Below are positions 1,054 to 8,159 of a stretch of 8,204 bases of DNA, one piece after another; position 1 is the first letter of the stretch, and the number at the start of each line of letters is the position of its first letter. Both the position numbers and the translations under genes were made by a program. The notes under the pieces are model-generated. The model saw nothing but the letters and a program-made list of their open reading frames with translations, had not been told where the DNA came from and did no database searches. Source of the DNA: Nitrospinae bacterium RIFCSPLOWO2_12_FULL_45_22 (GTDB lineage: Bacteria; 2-12-FULL-45-22); NCBI GenBank assembly GCA_001803565.1, contig MHDQ01000129.1, positions 692 to 8,895 of the forward strand, in the 5' to 3' direction.

Positions 1054-1178
1054 TCACCGCTGAAGACGCAGAGAACACTAAGACCGTGGGACGTGTCCGT
1101 GATCCGTGTCCATTACTCAACGGACACGTAGAACGGACACGGTTACGAAAGTGCATTCTCTGTGTCCTCTGTGGTGAA
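1054..1178. repeat. Composite nested repeat with CACAGAG-type arms
   Basis: The left arm starting at 1054 (CACCGCTGAAGACGCAGAG) is an imperfect inverted match to the right arm ending at 1178 (CTCTGTGTCCTCTGTGGTGA). An independent hairpin of 21-base arms lies inside: 1091-1111 against 1122-1142, with 17 of 21 positions pairing and a 10-base loop. The arms belong to the same family as those at 7991-8017 and 8131-8159. A TGGTGAACGGTTAC segment follows the right arm directly. Confidence 0.6.
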
Positions 1179-1199
1179 CGGTTACATATTTTTTATGTT

Positions 1200-1879: not shown

Positions 1880-4750
1880 TTATACCTTTTCTACTTTAAC
1901 TTTCGTGTCATAAAAGGAACAACTACCGCCAACCTTGGACTGGAGGGACACATTGCCCAGCTTGGCATCCAGCCGCATGACCAGATTGGCCTGAAGACCG
2001 GCACCACGGCTGGCATCGTATTCGGTCTCTGCACCATCTATGATATGGGGCCGGGAGCCTAATTCCCAGTGGCCATAGTGGTGCGAGATGGCTACCACGC
2101 CAGGGCGAATTCCTTCCATCACCTTGGCATAGCCCACAATACCGGTAGTATTACTGGCCGATGTTACCCGCACCTTATCCCCGGTAGAGATACCTAAAGA
2201 TTTCGCATCAGTGCTGTTTATCTCCACATAGTTTTCGGGGGCCAGCAGCATGAGCCAGGGGTTAGTGGCGGTCCGGGCCTGGCCGTGCCGCACAGACTTA
2301 TAAGTGATGAGGTGCAAGGGATAGGCACTGTCATCTACCGGGGTATCGTCCGCATGCCTGGGAACCTCGTATTTGGGCAGCGGATCAAAGGTCTTCCCGG
2401 TCATAGAATCTTTGGTAGTGGCTAGCTCTTCTATATAGAGATGGATCTCATTGCCATAGGTATTTTTCACATAATCGCCACTATATTCCTTGCCCGGGTC
2501 TTCAAAGGCCCCTCCTTTAGCCTTGATCTCTTCTACAGTAACGGTCCTTCCCAGGGCACTGGTGGCATTTTTGGCCAGGTTGTCCAGTTGCCTGCGGGTA
2601 AAATCCCAGGCCCTATCCAAAGAACCACCATCCTCAAAGGCCCCCGCACCGACGGAGGGGAGGTTCATCTTCTTAGCTAGCTCTATCAGGATATCCATAT
2701 ACATCTTGGTATTGGGCAGGATAGGCGTATAGTTCATATCGGCATCGAAGCTCCCTACTACCGGTTGCTGGAAGGCAGTGGCCTTGGCCAGGATAGCCGG
2801 AGATGTCCCGGTAAAGGCAAACTTTTCCAGATAGGTAGTATCGGGCAGGATATAATCGGCCAGAGCCGCTACCTCGCCTATATTGAGACTGATAGCCACA
2901 AAGAGGGGTAGCTTGCTCTCATCCTTGACATAGTCTTCAAAGACCTTTTTCAGGGCCGGGGTAGAATAAGGCCAGGCATTCCAGTAAGTAATTATGGCCT
3001 TAGCGGAATAAGGATAGCCATCGGCCGCACTGGGTATTGCCTCTTGAAAATTACCGTGGGTAGCATAGGGGAACCAGGGTCTCTTGGCCGGGTAACCATC
3101 CCGCTGGAAAAAGCTCTTGCCATCGGTTTCGTAAAATTTCAATTTTGTCCTATCTATCCGCACTCCCTTGTAACTTACCTTCTTAGGTACCTTGGTAACA
3201 TCAACAACACCGGTATTATTGGCATAGGCCCCGCCACCTGCCGTACTGCCGCCTTTCCAATCGTAGTTACCGATGAGGGTATCTAAGGCTATAACCGCCA
3301 GGGAAGAGTAAGCGCCATTGGTATGCTGGACAGTACCCCGATAATGTTCAGTCCCGGCCTTCTTCCCATGGCTGGTAAACTCCCTGGCCAGACTCTCTAT
3401 AGTGCTGCTCTCTATGCCGCAGATGGAGGCATATTCAGCAATGGTCTTCTCCTGCACCCGTTCTTTGAACAGGGTAAAGGCCGATTTGCAGCTCTTACCC
3501 CCAACGGTGACAGTGCCAGTATCCAGGGTCCCTTCTACGGCAGTAGTGGTATCATCACTCTTTACGGCTAGGCCCTGGGTCCCATCCCAGACCACAAACT
3601 TGCTCCCATCACCACCCAGGACATCATCCCGCAGGTATTTATTGGTGCTAAGATCCACCAACCAGGTAGCATCGGTCCAGGTCTTTTCGCCATCGGCCGT
3701 AGCTGCGGCCTTATTGGCATTCTTGAGGTATTTCTCGTCATATTTTTTATTATCAATGATCCAGCGGGCCATACCCAGGGCCAGGGCACCATCAGTGCCG
3801 GGCTTTACTGGTATCCAGCCGCCATTGGCCTGGGCTGCCGAGTGGGAAAAGCGGGGGTCTACCACTACATACTTACCACCGTTCCTCTTCATCTCCATCA
3901 GCTTGCGGGCAATGGGGACAAAGGCGAAGTTAGATTCAAGGGGGTTTGAGCCGAAAAGGAGGACATATTCCGAGCTGAGAAAATCGGCCTTGAAATGGTT
4001 CTTCCTCCCAGCCTTATTCGTTTTATCCCAGGTGACCAGCTCGTAGGCCACATGGTGGTCTACCTCACAGATACTGGTATGGTCCAGGCGATAATTGGCG
4101 GTACCAAAACCGTCCTTCCATATCCGGTCGCTAAAATCTCCTTCTACCGTGCGGCCCGGTGCGAATAGGACTTGATTGGCCACCGGTCCGGCCTCCGGGG
4201 CATCAGGATTGGCCGGGGTAGTCAAATCCCGCAGGGCCAGGAGGCGGGAGGCAATATCACTGAGGGCCTCATCCCAGCTCACCGTCTTCCATTGCCCCGA
4301 TCCCCTGGGCCCCACCCGCTTTAATGGCGCCTTTACCCGATAAGGGTCATAGAGGGTCTGGATACCGGCCTGTCCCTTGAGGCACATACGGCCCCGAGAC
4401 TTGTTGGCCTCAGTAGCGTCAGTGCTATAAGGGAGCCGCTCATCGGGGTGCATATTGTTGGGATGATAAGGGTTACCGTCCAGCTTCACCAGGACACCAT
4501 CTACTACCTTGGCCTGTAACCCACAACGGCCGTGGCACATCTGACAGAAGCTGCGGACTATCGTGACGCCCGGGGCAGTCTCTACTGGGTCTGCGGAATA
4601 TTGCCCTAGAGTGATGGCTGCCGCCTCTTTGGTCTTAAATATTGTCGAACTAAGGGCAGCAGCGGACGCCAGGGCACCACTTATGGCCAGGAACTTCCTG
4701 CGATCCACTTCTGGATTCAACCAATTCTTCCCCTTTTCCTCTCTCTCCAT
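1880..4750 (-). CDS. Tat-exported molybdopterin (bis-MGD) oxidoreductase catalytic subunit, TtrA/PsrA/ArrA-like, substrate unknown
   Basis: This 956-residue protein begins with a Tat signal (DRRKFLAISGALASA, twin Arg 17-18), so it acts outside the cytoplasmic membrane. The [4Fe-4S] ligands follow: C69-x2-C72-x3-C76 and then C123 in GRMCLKG, an unusually long 46-residue gap that contains GNPYHP. YDPYRVKAPLKRVG (134-147) and the following TVSWDEAL are typical of the DMSO reductase superfamily. C228 in DHTSICEVDHH is the probable molybdenum ligand, as in the polysulfide/arsenate/tetrathionate branch. The C-terminal third (about 808-950) has the molybdopterin-dinucleotide-binding fold, including ISHHYGHWELG. 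The ATG is preceded at 10 bases by AAAGGAGGT (4761-4769). FeS and TorD-like genes follow and a triheme cytochrome gene precedes. Tetrathionate, thiosulfate/polysulfide, arsenate or selenium oxyanions are possible substrates; none is demonstrated, so I give no gene symbol. Confidence 0.92.
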   Translation of the reverse strand: MEREEKGKNWLNPEVDRRKFLAISGALASAAALSSTIFKTKEAAAITLGQYSADPVETAPGVTIVRSFCQMCHGRCGLQAKVVDGVLVKLDGNPYHPNNMHPDERLPYSTDATEANKSRGRMCLKGQAGIQTLYDPYRVKAPLKRVGPRGSGQWKTVSWDEALSDIASRLLALRDLTTPANPDAPEAGPVANQVLFAPGRTVEGDFSDRIWKDGFGTANYRLDHTSICEVDHHVAYELVTWDKTNKAGRKNHFKADFLSSEYVLLFGSNPLESNFAFVPIARKLMEMKRNGGKYVVVDPRFSHSAAQANGGWIPVKPGTDGALALGMARWIIDNKKYDEKYLKNANKAAATADGEKTWTDATWLVDLSTNKYLRDDVLGGDGSKFVVWDGTQGLAVKSDDTTTAVEGTLDTGTVTVGGKSCKSAFTLFKERVQEKTIAEYASICGIESSTIESLAREFTSHGKKAGTEHYRGTVQHTNGAYSSLAVIALDTLIGNYDWKGGSTAGGGAYANNTGVVDVTKVPKKVSYKGVRIDRTKLKFYETDGKSFFQRDGYPAKRPWFPYATHGNFQEAIPSAADGYPYSAKAIITYWNAWPYSTPALKKVFEDYVKDESKLPLFVAISLNIGEVAALADYILPDTTYLEKFAFTGTSPAILAKATAFQQPVVGSFDADMNYTPILPNTKMYMDILIELAKKMNLPSVGAGAFEDGGSLDRAWDFTRRQLDNLAKNATSALGRTVTVEEIKAKGGAFEDPGKEYSGDYVKNTYGNEIHLYIEELATTKDSMTGKTFDPLPKYEVPRHADDTPVDDSAYPLHLITYKSVRHGQARTATNPWLMLLAPENYVEINSTDAKSLGISTGDKVRVTSASNTTGIVGYAKVMEGIRPGVVAISHHYGHWELGSRPHIIDGAETEYDASRGAGLQANLVMRLDAKLGNVSLQSKVGGSCSFYDTKVKVEKV

Positions 4751-4782: not shown

Positions 4783-4909
4783 CCTGAATTATGTAGGTTT
4801 CATTTAAAAATGCTTTACTCGCTTGTCATTCTGAGCCGCAGCCCTGAACAAAGTGAAGGGTCAGGCGAAGAATCTAACCAAGACCCTTCGCTCCGCTCCG
4901 GGTGACAAC
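4783..4909. mobile_element. Diverged, one-ended relative of the 6197-6336 MITE
   Basis: Reading the plus strand from 4783, the first 54 bases match the minus strand of the MITE from 6336 inward at 43 of 54 positions, including the terminal part (CCTGAATTATGTAGG against CCCAAATTATGCAGG). The interior TTGTCATTCTGAGC (from 4823) pairs with GCTCCGGGTGACAA (4896-4909), and GCGAAGAATCT (4865-4875) pairs with AGACCCTTCGC (4881-4891). An extra segment with CCCTGAAC...GAAGGGTCAG lies in the left half. The distal terminal repeat is not recognisable; the sequence changes to TGGTGAACGGTTAC. The element lies 14 bp upstream of the ribosome binding site of the molybdoenzyme gene, so it probably overlaps that gene's leader or promoter. 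Confidence 0.7.
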
Positions 4910-4960
4910 CCCTGGTGAACGGTTACGAAAAAGCCATTCAGTACTGAAAGATATATGTCA

Positions 4961-5731
4961 TTATTGATAGAAGGGTTTCGTAGAGCCTTTACTATGGCAG
5001 GCCACGCACCGGGTAACATCGGTATTACGCCGGAGGCTGACAGCCGATTCGTCCCGCATATCTACCCCTTTGCTATGGCAGGCCTGGCAGGTCTCGTTTG
5101 TAACCGTAGTAGTGCCAGGATAATAGGGAAACATGGCGGCATGGGCAGGTTTTATGCTGGGGTCTAAAGATTTTTCGCTTACCCGGTCACCATGGCAGAT
5201 CAAGCAAGCCTTATTATAACTAGGGGAGTTAGGGTCATGGGCGGCCATGATGGCCGAGGGGGATTTGAAGGGCTTTATTAAGTTAAAAGAGGTACTAGAA
5301 TATGATGTAAAAGGGGGGGTAATAGAACCTGGTTTGGTAAATACTGCCCAGAAGGTGTAAGCACCACCAGTGATATCTGGTACCTGAAAATCGAATAAGG
5401 TCCCTGCGGCATTACTTACGTTCCAGGAAGTAGCTAGTGGGACAATCTGGTCTGTCCACTGCGTCTGTGGGGTCAAGAATTGAAAGGTATTATCCGGCAA
5501 CTGTAAGGCAAAATATATATCTACCTTATTATTTTCTGTCCCGGCCTTAATATCGAATTTCAAGGTTAAGCGATCCTGGCCCTTAACATAGTTGTTCTTA
5601 TTAGCGATAAGGGTGATAGAGGGGTTACCGGCTAATGCGGTCACGGCAGGTAAAAAGAGTAATCCTACTGCGAAGATACAGATTAAAACTAAACCTAAAT
5701 ACTTCAATTCTACTCGATTACCTCGCTCCAT
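4961..5731 (-). CDS. Exported triheme c-type cytochrome with N-terminal beta-rich domain
   Basis: The 256-residue protein starts with a hydrophobic signal segment (about 11-34, ending TALAG), either a cleavable signal peptide or a membrane anchor. Residues about 36-152 form a beta-rich, Ig-like region (VDIYFALQLPDNTF, GGAYTFWAVFTKPG) without heme motifs; similar domains occur in secreted proteins of metal- and sulfur-respiring bacteria. The C-terminal part has three covalent heme sites: CLICH (176-180), CQACH (215-219) and CVACH (242-246). Only two other histidines exist (H165, H197), so one heme lacks a His sixth ligand; Met162, Met200 or Met225 could serve. AAAGGAGG at 5743-5750 precedes the ATG by 11 bases. 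It is the first gene of the apparent molybdoenzyme cluster and is the likely electron partner, by context. I do not recognise a named family. Confidence 0.85.
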   Translation of the reverse strand: MERGNRVELKYLGLVLICIFAVGLLFLPAVTALAGNPSITLIANKNNYVKGQDRLTLKFDIKAGTENNKVDIYFALQLPDNTFQFLTPQTQWTDQIVPLATSWNVSNAAGTLFDFQVPDITGGAYTFWAVFTKPGSITPPFTSYSSTSFNLIKPFKSPSAIMAAHDPNSPSYNKACLICHGDRVSEKSLDPSIKPAHAAMFPYYPGTTTVTNETCQACHSKGVDMRDESAVSLRRNTDVTRCVACHSKGSTKPFYQ

Positions 5732-5950: not shown

Positions 5951-6151
5951 TTAACTGATAGAAATGTTTTCTCCTTTAAGTTTTCTGACAATATTCTCTG
6001 CATTACCTAAATAGATATTTGTGGTCACGACCCGGCTGGGGCCGGACCCCGGGCCCTTACCGTCCTGTGAGCCATCCAGCTTTATCCGCTGGGAATGACG
6101 GTAGTAGTAGTGATATTTTCGCCCCCGTTTGATCTCGTATATCTTACCCAT
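5951..6151 (-). pseudogene. Short frame resembling the N-terminus of a transposase (probable truncated remnant)
   Basis: The 66-residue basic frame starts well: GGAGGAG (6161-6167) lies 9 bases before the ATG. The content KIYEIKRGRKYHYYYRHSQR, followed by a Gly/Ser/Lys-rich stretch and VVTTNIYLGNAENIVRKLKG, resembles the first residues of IS1634/IS4-superfamily-like transposases (a short beta hairpin, then a YLG motif before the DDE domain). No DDE catalytic core follows in any frame down to the cytochrome gene. It is therefore best read as a 5' fragment of an insertion sequence. The resemblance is from memory of the family pattern, not a search. It could alternatively be a genuine small DNA-binding protein. 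The MITE left end is 46 bp upstream of its start codon. Confidence 0.45.
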
Positions 6152-6191: not shown

Positions 6192-6196
6192 CTAAT
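6192..6196. repeat. Left target-site duplication CTAAT of the MITE
   Basis: CTAAT directly precedes the MITE end at 6197 and is repeated in direct orientation at 6337-6341, directly after the other end. The preceding base is G on both sides, but at 6336 that G belongs to the terminal repeat. Confidence 0.75.
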
Positions 6197-6336
6197 CCCA
6201 AATTATGCACGAATTTAGGAAGAACCGGTTGTATTGTCACCCTGAGCAACGCGAAGGGTCTCTTTTTAGATTCTTCGCTACCGCTCATAATGACAGGCTA
6301 GTAAAGCGTTTTAAAACGATTCCTGCATAATTTGGG
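6197..6336. mobile_element. 140-bp MITE with 18-bp terminal inverted repeats
   Basis: The ends CCCAAATTATGCACGAAT (6197-6214) and ATTCCTGCATAATTTGGG (6319-6336) are inverted copies matching at 17 of 18 positions. The flanking bases are CTAAT on both sides (6192-6196 and 6337-6341) in direct orientation, which an inverted repeat alone would not create; this is a 5-bp target-site duplication. The interior has a second inverted repeat, TTGTCACCCTGAGC (6234-6247) against GCTCATAATGACA (6283-6295), with GCGAAGGGTCT and AGATTCTTCGC inside. It is too short to code for a transposase, so it must have been moved in trans. Confidence 0.85.
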
Positions 6337-6341
6337 CTAAT
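6337..6341. repeat. Right target-site duplication CTAAT of the MITE
   Basis: This is the second direct copy of the 5-bp target sequence and abuts the terminal repeat ending at 6336. Five-base duplications narrow the class of transposase that moved the element. Confidence 0.75.
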
Positions 6342-6352
6342 ATACCCTTATT

Positions 6353-6471
6353 AAGGAGGAAATATAATGTAAGCAAAGGTCATGCCAGGATGGATAAAGA
6401 ATTGGGGCGGCTTATGTAATCCCAAGGTAATAGAGGACTTGCTGGATCTCAGGAGACAAAAATGGAGATAA
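6353..6471 (+). other. Strong ribosome binding site with ATG-TAA start-stop and short downstream frame
   Basis: AAGGAGG (6353-6359) is followed after 7 bases by ATG (6367-6369) and immediately by TAA (6370-6372). In the same frame the sequence stays open to 6471 (an ATG at 6382 begins MPGWIKNWGGLCNPKVIEDL and 9 further residues). This may be a decayed small gene with a nonsense change at codon 2, a 29-residue peptide starting at 6382, or a regulatory start-stop. I recognise no family. It is the only credible plus-strand translation signal in the window. Confidence 0.25.
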
Positions 6472-6559: not shown

Positions 6560-6600
6560 GTAACATTTAAGTAACTATGTTACCCTATGGAAACACAGGG
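6560..6600 (-). terminator. Tandem hairpins after the response-regulator gene
   Basis: Reading the minus strand from the stop codon, CCCTGTG-TTTC-CATAGGG (6600-6583) forms a 7-pair stem with one G-U pair in RNA. It is followed at once by GTAACAT/ATGTTAC (6577-6583 with 6560-6566), a perfect 7-pair stem with a 10-base loop. They start 3 bases after the stop codon. No U-tract follows, so intrinsic termination is uncertain; 3'-end stabilisation is an alternative. Confidence 0.35.
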
Positions 6601-6603
6601 GGC

Positions 6604-7974
6604 TTAATTCAGGCCGAGGGCCTTGATCTTTTCCCAGAGGCATTTTCGGCTGATGCCCAGCCTTTCTGCGGCCCGGCCTTTTTGGCCATTACAGGCTCGC
6701 AATACCTGCCTGATATAATCTTTTTCATATTCTTTTATGGCATCATTCAAGGGTCGGAAGCCTTCTCTGGGAAGGGTACGGGGGGCTGTTGAGGTGCCCT
6801 GTAGTTCGGGCGGTAGACATTGGGCTGGTATTTCATCCTGATCCGGTGGGCATAATACTACAGCCCGTTCCATGATATTTTCTAATTCCCGGACATTGCC
6901 GGGATAATGGTACCCTAATAAAGGGCTTAACCCTTCCGGGGAGATACTCTTGATCTTTTTTCCGGTTCGGGCATTGTAGCGCGCAAGAAAATGCTGAACC
7001 AGTAGAGGAATATCTTCCCTCCTGTCCCGGAGGGGAGGTAAGACCATGGGGACTACATTGAGCCGATAGAAGAGGTCATCCCGGAACACCCCTTTTTCTA
7101 CTTCGGCCTTAAGGTCCCGCTTGGTAGCGCTTATTACCCGGACATTTATCTTTATGGTCTCTGTCCCACCAACCCGCTCATATTCCTTTTCCTGGAGCAC
7201 ACGCAATAATTTCCCCTGGAGCGATAGAGGCAGGTCATCAATATCATCAAGGAAGATAGAGCCGCCTTCTGCCAGCTCAAACTTTCCTTTTTTTTCTTTA
7301 ATGGCACTGGTAAAAGCGCCTTTCTCATGACCGAATAGCTCGGTCTCCAGAAGGGATTCCGGTAAGGCAGCACAATTGACCTTAATGAGGGGACAATTTC
7401 TCCGGGGGCTCCTCTGATGAATGGCCCTGGCAACCAATTCCTTGCCCGTACCAGTCTCTCCTTGGATTAGGATAGTAGAATCAGTCTTAGCCAGAATATT
7501 GATCAGATCGAATAGTTCCTGCATCGGGGGGCTCTTCCCGACCAGGTCTTCCAGGGTATAGCTCTGGCTGATCTCCTGACGGAGGCGCTGGTTCTCCCAG
7601 ACTAGTTGTTTTTCCCGGATGAGCCGCTCGATCATAAAGAGCAGCTCATCCATAATAAAGGGCTTGGTAAGGTAATCGTAGGCCCCTTGTTTCATGGCCC
7701 CGACAGCCGACTCTACCGTAGCATAGGCAGTTATAAGGATTACTGTAGTATCTGGAGAGACCTTTTTGCATTCCTGGAGGATCTGCAAGCCATCGTACTT
7801 AGGTAGGCGTAGATCAGTAATTAAAACATCATAGCTGTCTTCCCGGAGCATTTGGATGCCCTGGGCACCATCTTCAGCACTACGGACCGGGTATCCTTGC
7901 CCCTTGAGAGTATCGGTAATGGATACCCGCATCAGGGGTTCATCATCAATAACCAGGACCTTAGGTATAAACAT
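6604..7974 (-). CDS. NtrC-family sigma-54-dependent response regulator (REC-AAA+-FIS)
   Basis: With the ATG at 7974 the protein has 456 residues and three domains. The receiver (about 3-118) has acidic residues D10/D11, phospho-acceptor D54, T82 and K104. The AAA+ domain has Walker A GETGTGKE (172-179), the sigma-54 contact loop as GAFTSA (219-224) instead of GAFTGA, Walker B as IFLDD (240-244) instead of FLDE, sensor I as ATKRDL (283-288), arginine-finger region FRDDLFYRLN and GNVREL (359-364). The FIS-type helix-turn-helix ends the protein (RAAERLGISRKCLWEKIKAL). Such proteins are cytoplasmic activators of sigma-54 promoters, phosphorylated by a partner histidine kinase; none is in the window. 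A GTG start at 7995 would add 7 residues but lies inside a repeat arm. Neither start has a clear ribosome binding site. Its target is unknown; the neighbouring respiratory cluster is a candidate. Confidence 0.93.
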   Translation of the reverse strand: MFIPKVLVIDDEPLMRVSITDTLKGQGYPVRSAEDGAQGIQMLREDSYDVLITDLRLPKYDGLQILQECKKVSPDTTVILITAYATVESAVGAMKQGAYDYLTKPFIMDELLFMIERLIREKQLVWENQRLRQEISQSYTLEDLVGKSPPMQELFDLINILAKTDSTILIQGETGTGKELVARAIHQRSPRRNCPLIKVNCAALPESLLETELFGHEKGAFTSAIKEKKGKFELAEGGSIFLDDIDDLPLSLQGKLLRVLQEKEYERVGGTETIKINVRVISATKRDLKAEVEKGVFRDDLFYRLNVVPMVLPPLRDRREDIPLLVQHFLARYNARTGKKIKSISPEGLSPLLGYHYPGNVRELENIMERAVVLCPPDQDEIPAQCLPPELQGTSTAPRTLPREGFRPLNDAIKEYEKDYIRQVLRACNGQKGRAAERLGISRKCLWEKIKALGLN

Positions 7975-7990
7975 AATAATTAGTAAGAAG

Positions 7991-8159
7991 GCCACAGAGG
8001 CACAGAGTACACAGAGGTAGCAGCACCGTCTTACGGTGCGATAAACCTTTGGCAGGCTAAGAGCCTGCAGCTACACTACTCATTAGCACAGCCAATTATC
8101 TTTTCTGTTACTCGATTCAAATCCTCGTTTATTCTCTGTGACCTCTGTGATTCTGTGGC
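7991..8159. repeat. Composite nested repeat with CACAGAG-type arms
   Basis: The left arm GCCACAGAGGCACAGAGTAC (7991-8010, continuing to 8017) is an inverted match to the right arm ending CTGTGATTCTGTGGC at 8159 (from 8131), with roughly 22 of 26 positions pairing. The 113-bp interior starts with a complete double-hairpin element (8017-8074). The left arm covers the alternative GTG start of the response regulator, and the element occupies most of that gene's upstream region. Confidence 0.65.
8017..8074. repeat. Double-hairpin (REP-like) element, copy B
   Basis: This is a symmetrical element: GTAGC, A, GCACCGT-CTT-ACGGTGC (stem 8023-8029 with 8033-8039), a 12-base spacer, GCAGGCT-AAG-AGCCTGC (stem 8052-8058 with 8062-8068), A, GCTAC. 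Both stems have 7 perfect pairs and 3-base loops, and the outer GTAGC/GCTAC also pair. The organisation matches that at 934-997, but the stem sequences differ. Confidence 0.7.

What the first reader, a model, noticed from the sequence alone, without database searches (positions are those of the whole stretch)
6192..6341. MITE with intact terminal repeats and a 5-bp target-site duplication
Directly visible: 18-bp terminal inverted repeats (17/18) bound a 140-bp non-coding element, and CTAAT is duplicated in direct orientation exactly at both boundaries. Exact boundaries with a preserved target duplication suggest fairly recent transposition. It sits between a minus-strand transposase-like remnant and a plus-strand translation start, splitting what may have been a divergent promoter region.
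Basis: seen in the sequence. Interest (0 to 1): 0.7.

Follow-up and report, generated by a model that had tools for sequence, protein, structure and literature searches.

The report
IS1380-type mini-transposon with REP core
The 140-base element is a real small non-coding transposon of the IS1380 type; it carries a second kind of bacterial repeat in its middle, and it sits in the untranslated leader of a respiratory-type operon, where it should form a strong RNA hairpin.

Summary
In detail: 13/13 (17/18 extended) terminal inverted repeats at 6197-6336, flanked by CTAAT on both sides. None of 300 shuffled windows had such a pair with a duplication. It is best read as a non-autonomous IS1380-family element. 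Its ends (CCCAAATTATGCA) and 5-bp AT-rich duplication match real IS1380 copies, for example one from Aliarcobacter with CCCGCATTATGCA / CCCAGATTATGCA and TTAAT. No autonomous partner with this exact end was found in the 85%-complete genome. The middle (6235-6296) is an inverted pair of TGTC/CGTC-type REP palindromes. The genome carries the same IS1380-type ends around other cores (a GTAG-type REP pair, a GTCATTGCGAG palindrome). It also carries the same REP core inside a second family with GTAACCGTTCACC ends and 8-bp duplications (IS66-type). The window itself (4783-4926) holds a hybrid with one end of each kind. The "transposase remnant" is a small gene under purifying selection. The site is not a divergent promoter: it lies between a strong sigma-54 promoter match (6387-6372, minus) and the first gene of a minus-strand operon. 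Mosaic MITE/REP elements are a new variant of a known kind.

The parts
6192..6196 (+). left copy of the 5-bp target duplication, CTAAT
   Evidence: read directly; 5 bp is the only significant duplication length for the family
6197..6209 (+). left terminal inverted repeat CCCAAATTATGCA (18 bp with one mismatch to 6214), IS1380-type
6210..6234 (+). left arm between the TIR and the REP core
6235..6296 (.). core: inverted pair of TGTC/CGTC-type REP palindromes (TGTCACCCTGAGC...GGGTCT / AGATTCTTCGC...ATGACA), repeated elsewhere in the genome
   Evidence: class described in PMC3733652
6297..6323 (-). right arm, shared with elements that carry other cores
6324..6336 (-). right terminal inverted repeat (18 bp with one mismatch from 6319)
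6337..6341 (+). right copy of the target duplication, CTAAT
6372..6387 (-). sigma-54-type promoter match TGGCATGACCTTTGCT (11 of 12 consensus positions), reading towards the element and the operon
   Evidence: the only match of at least 9 on the minus strand of the window
5951..6151 (-). small conserved gene (66 aa), first ORF after the element; not a transposase remnant by the tests made
4783..4926 (+). hybrid element: left end IS1380-type (CCTGAATTATGTA plus arm), same REP core, right end IS66-type (GGTGAACGGTTAC)

Best explanation
The feature is a non-autonomous miniature element of the IS1380 type. Shown: exact 13-bp ends, a 5-bp duplication, no coding capacity, and other elements with the same ends in this genome and in four other MAGs. 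Inferred: it was inserted by an IS1380-family transposase supplied in trans, which recognised CCCAAATTATGCA-type ends and cut an AT-rich target with a 5-bp stagger. Shown: its core is an inverted pair of TGTC/CGTC-type REP palindromes that also occurs alone and inside an IS66-type MITE family. Inferred: the REP pair entered the MITE as a nested insertion, or by exchange between palindromic elements, and the composite then moved as one unit. Shown: it lies in a tandem minus-strand region between a sigma-54-type promoter match and the first gene of an operon. Inferred: about 140 of the roughly 210 nucleotides of leader RNA are this element, folded as one strong hairpin, which could affect mRNA stability or leave expression unchanged.
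For: TIR and TSD and their rarity. Same ends with different cores in the genome: C218, C54, C285, C307, C151, C92, C74. Exact-end pairs in four other MAGs, two diverged copies at different sites in one of them. Real IS1380 copies end in CCC(A/G)NATTAT(G/T)CA-like repeats: Aliarcobacter CCCGCATTATGCAATA / CCCAGATTATGCAATA with TTAAT duplication, ISSsu5-like CCTGAATAATTCATA, and others. A published IS1380 element, IS1247, has a 5-bp duplication (PMC3281130). IS1380 transposases are present in the genome. REP core and its class. Sigma-54 match and paralog leader. Hairpin: RNA -53.8 kcal/mol, z -6.8; DNA z -4.9.
Against: None of the IS1380 copies found in this genome has the exact CCCAAATTATGCA end; the nearest, C48, has CCCTAATTGTTCAGTA, and several copies are cut by contig ends. 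No empty site could be examined. The duplication is imperfect in most other copies (3 of 15 perfect), as expected for old insertions. Arms and core of the nearest copies are diverged.
Confidence: 0.83

Rival explanations
1. The element is a MITE, but of another transposon family that also makes 5-bp duplications (for example Tn3-type TIMEs or another IS4-superfamily group); the likeness to IS1380 ends is convergence of short sequences.
For: No autonomous element with the exact end was found in the genome. Tn3-type miniature elements also make 5-6 bp duplications in AT-rich targets (PMC4133298).
Against: The ends agree with the Aliarcobacter IS1380 at 12 of 13 positions on each side (A/G allowed at position 4), and with the general IS1380 end pattern in several genomes.
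Confidence: 0.1
2. It is a resident regulatory hairpin of the operon leader that only looks like a transposon; the CTAAT pair is coincidence.
For: Strong folding, position in the leader after a sigma-54-type promoter; the paralogous operon leader on C180 also holds a palindromic element.
Against: The same ends occur at unrelated sites around other cores, and the family shows a 5-bp duplication. The paralog's leader carries an unrelated, IS66-type-like sequence instead.
Confidence: 0.04
3. The mosaic structure arose by exchange: palindromic elements recombine or switch template through a common REP core, so ends and cores are reshuffled. (A sub-question within the best explanation, not an alternative to it.)
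For: The window's own hybrid 4783-4926: left 41 bp matches the IS1380-type arm (z 10.7 and 7.0) and not the IS66-type arms; right 27 bp matches the IS66-type end (z 7 to 11); no target duplication.
Against: Only one hybrid seen; nested insertion of REPs into MITEs can explain the other cores without exchange, and REP dimers inside palindromes are known elsewhere (PMC3733652).
Confidence: 0.4
4. The first reader's view that the element splits a divergent promoter next to a transposase remnant.
For: A short ORF does lie next to it, and a ribosome-binding-site-like AGGAGG precedes ATG at 6367.
Against: ATG is followed directly by TAA; flanking genes are both on the minus strand; the 66-aa ORF has a constrained paralog and no transposase match.
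Confidence: 0.02

Closest known systems
IS1380 family insertion sequences (IS1247, ISEcp1, ISSsu5, Aliarcobacter cibarius IS1380)
   Same: CC(C/T)-starting ends of the same pattern, 5-bp AT-rich duplication
   Different: 140 bp, no transposase; the exact end was not found on an autonomous copy in this genome
CGTC- and GTAG-tagged REPs and their dimers (Di Nocera et al. 2013, PMC3733652)
   Same: core is an inverted pair of TGTC-tagged palindromes; dimers nested in palindromes were reported for A. variabilis and H. neapolitanus
   Different: here the surrounding palindrome is a recognisable IS1380-type (and in other copies IS66-type) MITE, and several REP classes share the same ends
Mosaic non-autonomous Tn3-derived elements (TIMEs, PMC4133298)
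   Same: transposase-less elements with 5-6 bp AT-rich duplications that form mosaics
   Different: other ends and other parent family
IS66-type MITEs with GTAACCGTTCACC ends in the same genome
   Same: carry the same REP core in some copies
   Different: other transposase family, 8-bp duplications; over 100 end sequences in the genome against about a dozen IS1380-type pairs

Membership tests
MITE (non-autonomous DNA transposon) | terminal inverted repeats bounding a short non-coding segment | tested here: met
MITE (non-autonomous DNA transposon) | target-site duplication of fixed length | tested here: met
   CTAAT 5/5 here; 5 bp for the family, p=0.001
MITE (non-autonomous DNA transposon) | several copies at different sites with flanks that diverge at the ends | tested here: met
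   composite family C307/C285/C151/C92, 80-94% alike at different sites
MITE (non-autonomous DNA transposon) | empty orthologous site | not testable with these tools
   only one genome of the same order is held, and it has no match
IS1380-derived element | ends like those of IS1380 elements | tested here: met
   12/13 on each side against the Aliarcobacter copy, A/G allowed at position 4; pattern in other genomes
IS1380-derived element | 5-bp (4-5) duplication | tested here: met
   IS1247 DR 5 in PMC3281130
IS1380-derived element | autonomous partner with the same end in the genome | tested here: inconclusive
   IS1380 transposases present, ends differ or are cut by contig ends
IS1380-derived element | mobilised by an IS1380 transposase | not testable with these tools
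   needs a transposition assay
CGTC REP dimer (core) | CGTC/TGTC tag outside a short palindrome, in inverted pairs | tested here: met
   TGTCACCC... and ...ATGACA, read directly; genome-wide copies
CGTC REP dimer (core) | 8-9 bp stem starting with AT, CCA tail | tested here: inconclusive
   one unit starts ATT, the other ACC; tails are CT; stems imperfect (sequence; definition)
IS66-type MITE (second family, GTAACCGTTCACC ends) | GTAA ends with 8-bp duplication | tested here: met
   66% matching flanks at 8 bp vs 36% expected, none of 5000 permutations; published IS66 elements have 8-bp DR (PMC3281130); an IS66 transposase gene starts about 100 bp inside such an end on C275. The GTAA rule is from general knowledge

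The most novel reading that the evidence does not exclude
CGTC-type REP pairs, which have no known transposase, spread in this genome as interchangeable cargo of MITEs from at least two unrelated transposase families, and shared cores let the ends recombine into hybrids.
Probability: 0.3. Interest if true: 0.55.

Novelty: new variant of a known kind. Interest (0 to 1): 0.38.

Why it matters
How CGTC-type REPs move is listed as open in the paper that defined them (PMC3733652). A genome where they sit inside IS1380- and IS66-type ends, with target duplications, offers a simple route (hitch-hiking) that can be tested. It also shows how intergenic hairpins of an operon can be supplied by several mobile families.

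Tried and rejected
Rfam search of the window: no family. Exact TIR pair in viral contigs: none. TIR string in papers: none. The 140 bp in 60 other genomes: only fragments of the REP core. DDE_Tnp_1 and IS1380 loci in the own genome as the exact parent: ends differ. The four other-MAG loci as the autonomous parent: no transposase recognised next to the elements in the ORFs read. Transposase identity of the 66-aa ORF: rejected. Full IS66 at C275 as an intact parent: only the left end is secure; there is an assembly gap, and the right end belongs to a separate MITE.

Full report
Observation. The window has an inverted repeat of 13 perfect (18 with one mismatch) bases at 6197-6214 and 6319-6336, and CTAAT directly outside both ends. 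In 300 dinucleotide shuffles of the window no 13-bp inverted repeat came with a flanking 5-bp direct repeat.

Copies. The whole 140 bp occurs once in the genome (G000, 3.67 Mb, 321 contigs, 85% complete); other matches cover only the middle or one end. Searching the ends instead gave a family: C218 (128 bp), C54 (184), C285, C307, C151 and C92 (127 each), C74 (126), and weaker candidates. Exact-end pairs of 138-163 bp were also found in four unrelated MAGs (Bacteroidales, two Deltaproteobacteria, Helicobacteraceae), one of which has a second copy nearby. Over 15 such elements the flanks agree at 5 bp more than swapped flanks do (p=0.001) and at no other length.

Parent family. Annotated IS1380 elements were fetched and their ends searched. 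The Aliarcobacter cibarius copy ends in CCCGCATTATGCAATA and CCCAGATTATGCAATA with a TTAAT duplication; ISSsu5-like copies end in CCTGAATAATTCATA. IS1380 copies in other genomes give CCCGAATAATTCACCA / CCCGGATTATTCACCA and the like. IS1247 is published with a 5-bp duplication (PMC3281130). The element is therefore placed as IS1380-type. The genome does encode IS1380 transposases, but none found carries the exact end, so the parent is inferred.

Core. Positions 6235-6296 are two palindromes in inverted orientation with TGTC tags outward, the layout of CGTC-type REP pairs (PMC3733652). The same core occurs without such ends (C265, C299, C319, C283) and inside a second family with GTAACCGTTCACC ends (C230, C302, C288, C43 and others). 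That second family shows perfect 8-bp duplications in many copies (66% agreement at 8 bp, 36% expected), the length published for IS66 elements, and an IS66 transposase gene lies about 100 bp inside one such end on C275. There are 108 end sequences of this kind in the genome with at most one mismatch, against none for the reversed control.

Mosaic. The same IS1380-type ends surround different cores: the TGTC pair (C129, C218), a GTCATTGCGAG palindrome (C54), a GTAG-type pair (C285, C307, C151, C92), and an AGACGC palindrome (C74). Right arms are significantly alike across different cores (for example 4783 vs C54, z 5.0; C92 vs C54, z 5.3). The GTAG composite has moved as a unit: C307 is 94%, 91% and 80% identical to C285, C151 and C92 at different sites. 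The window also holds a hybrid at 4783-4926. Its left 41 bp match the IS1380-type arm (z 10.7 and 7.0) and not the IS66-type arms, its right 27 bp match the IS66-type end (z 7 to 11), and it has no duplication. This suggests exchange through the shared core, but one case does not prove it.

Surroundings. All genes here are on the minus strand: a sigma-54-activating response regulator (6604-7995), then the element, a 66-aa ORF (5951-6151), a cytochrome-like gene (4961-5731), a molybdopterin oxidoreductase (1880-4750), an iron-sulphur protein (1200-1775) and a chaperone (181-864). On the minus strand at 6387-6372 is TGGCATGACCTTTGCT, 11 of 12 sigma-54 consensus positions and the only match of 9 or more on that strand of the window. 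Matches of 10 or more occur at 0.078 per kb in this genome's loci. A paralogous operon on C180 has TGGCACAAAAATTGCC 201 bp before its 66-aa homologue; in the window the distance is 222 bp. So the element lies in the predicted leader. Folded in the transcribed direction it gives -53.8 kcal/mol, z -6.8. The C180 leader holds a degraded piece alike to the second MITE family (alignment score 20, best of 300 shuffles 17).

The 66-aa ORF. It matches no Pfam, NCBIfam or PHROGs family and no plasmid record. Its C180 paralog is 80% identical, with changes by codon position 8, 6 and 27 and dN/dS about 0.09 (NG86) to 0.19 (YN00). It is a constrained gene, not a remnant.

Verdict. A correct observation and a correct class (MITE), with the family now proposed (IS1380), the core identified (REP pair), and the context corrected (operon leader, not divergent promoter). 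Age, exact parent and any regulatory effect remain inferred.

Noticed in passing
window 4783-4926: Hybrid element with one IS1380-type end and one IS66-type end around the same REP core, between the oxidoreductase and cytochrome genes.
   Followed up: yes
window 5951-6151 (-) and L057: 66-aa small protein upstream of two paralogous cytochrome-type operons, under purifying selection, with no family match.
   Followed up: partly
window 6372-6387 (-), 6560-6583: Strong sigma-54 promoter match, and about 190 bp upstream a dyad GTAACAT-N10-ATGTTAC that could bind the response regulator encoded next to it.
   Followed up: partly
window about 930-1010: GTAG-type inverted pair (TTTGTAGTGGTCGAGC...GCTCTGCCACTACA) between two operon genes; the same repeats form cores of IS66-type MITEs elsewhere in the genome (L111, L138).
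   Followed up: no
window 1173-1185: Another IS66-type end GGTGAACGGTTAC, next to an ACCGCTGAAGACGCAGAG...CTCTGTGTCCTCTGTGGT palindrome; no intact left end.
   Followed up: no
genome G000: 108 copies (at most one mismatch) of GTAACCGTTCACC, a very abundant IS66-type MITE end with clean 8-bp duplications and many unrelated palindromic cores.
   Followed up: partly
L057 leader (C180): The paralogous sigma-54-type leader also carries a degraded MITE-like palindrome, of the other family.
   Followed up: partly
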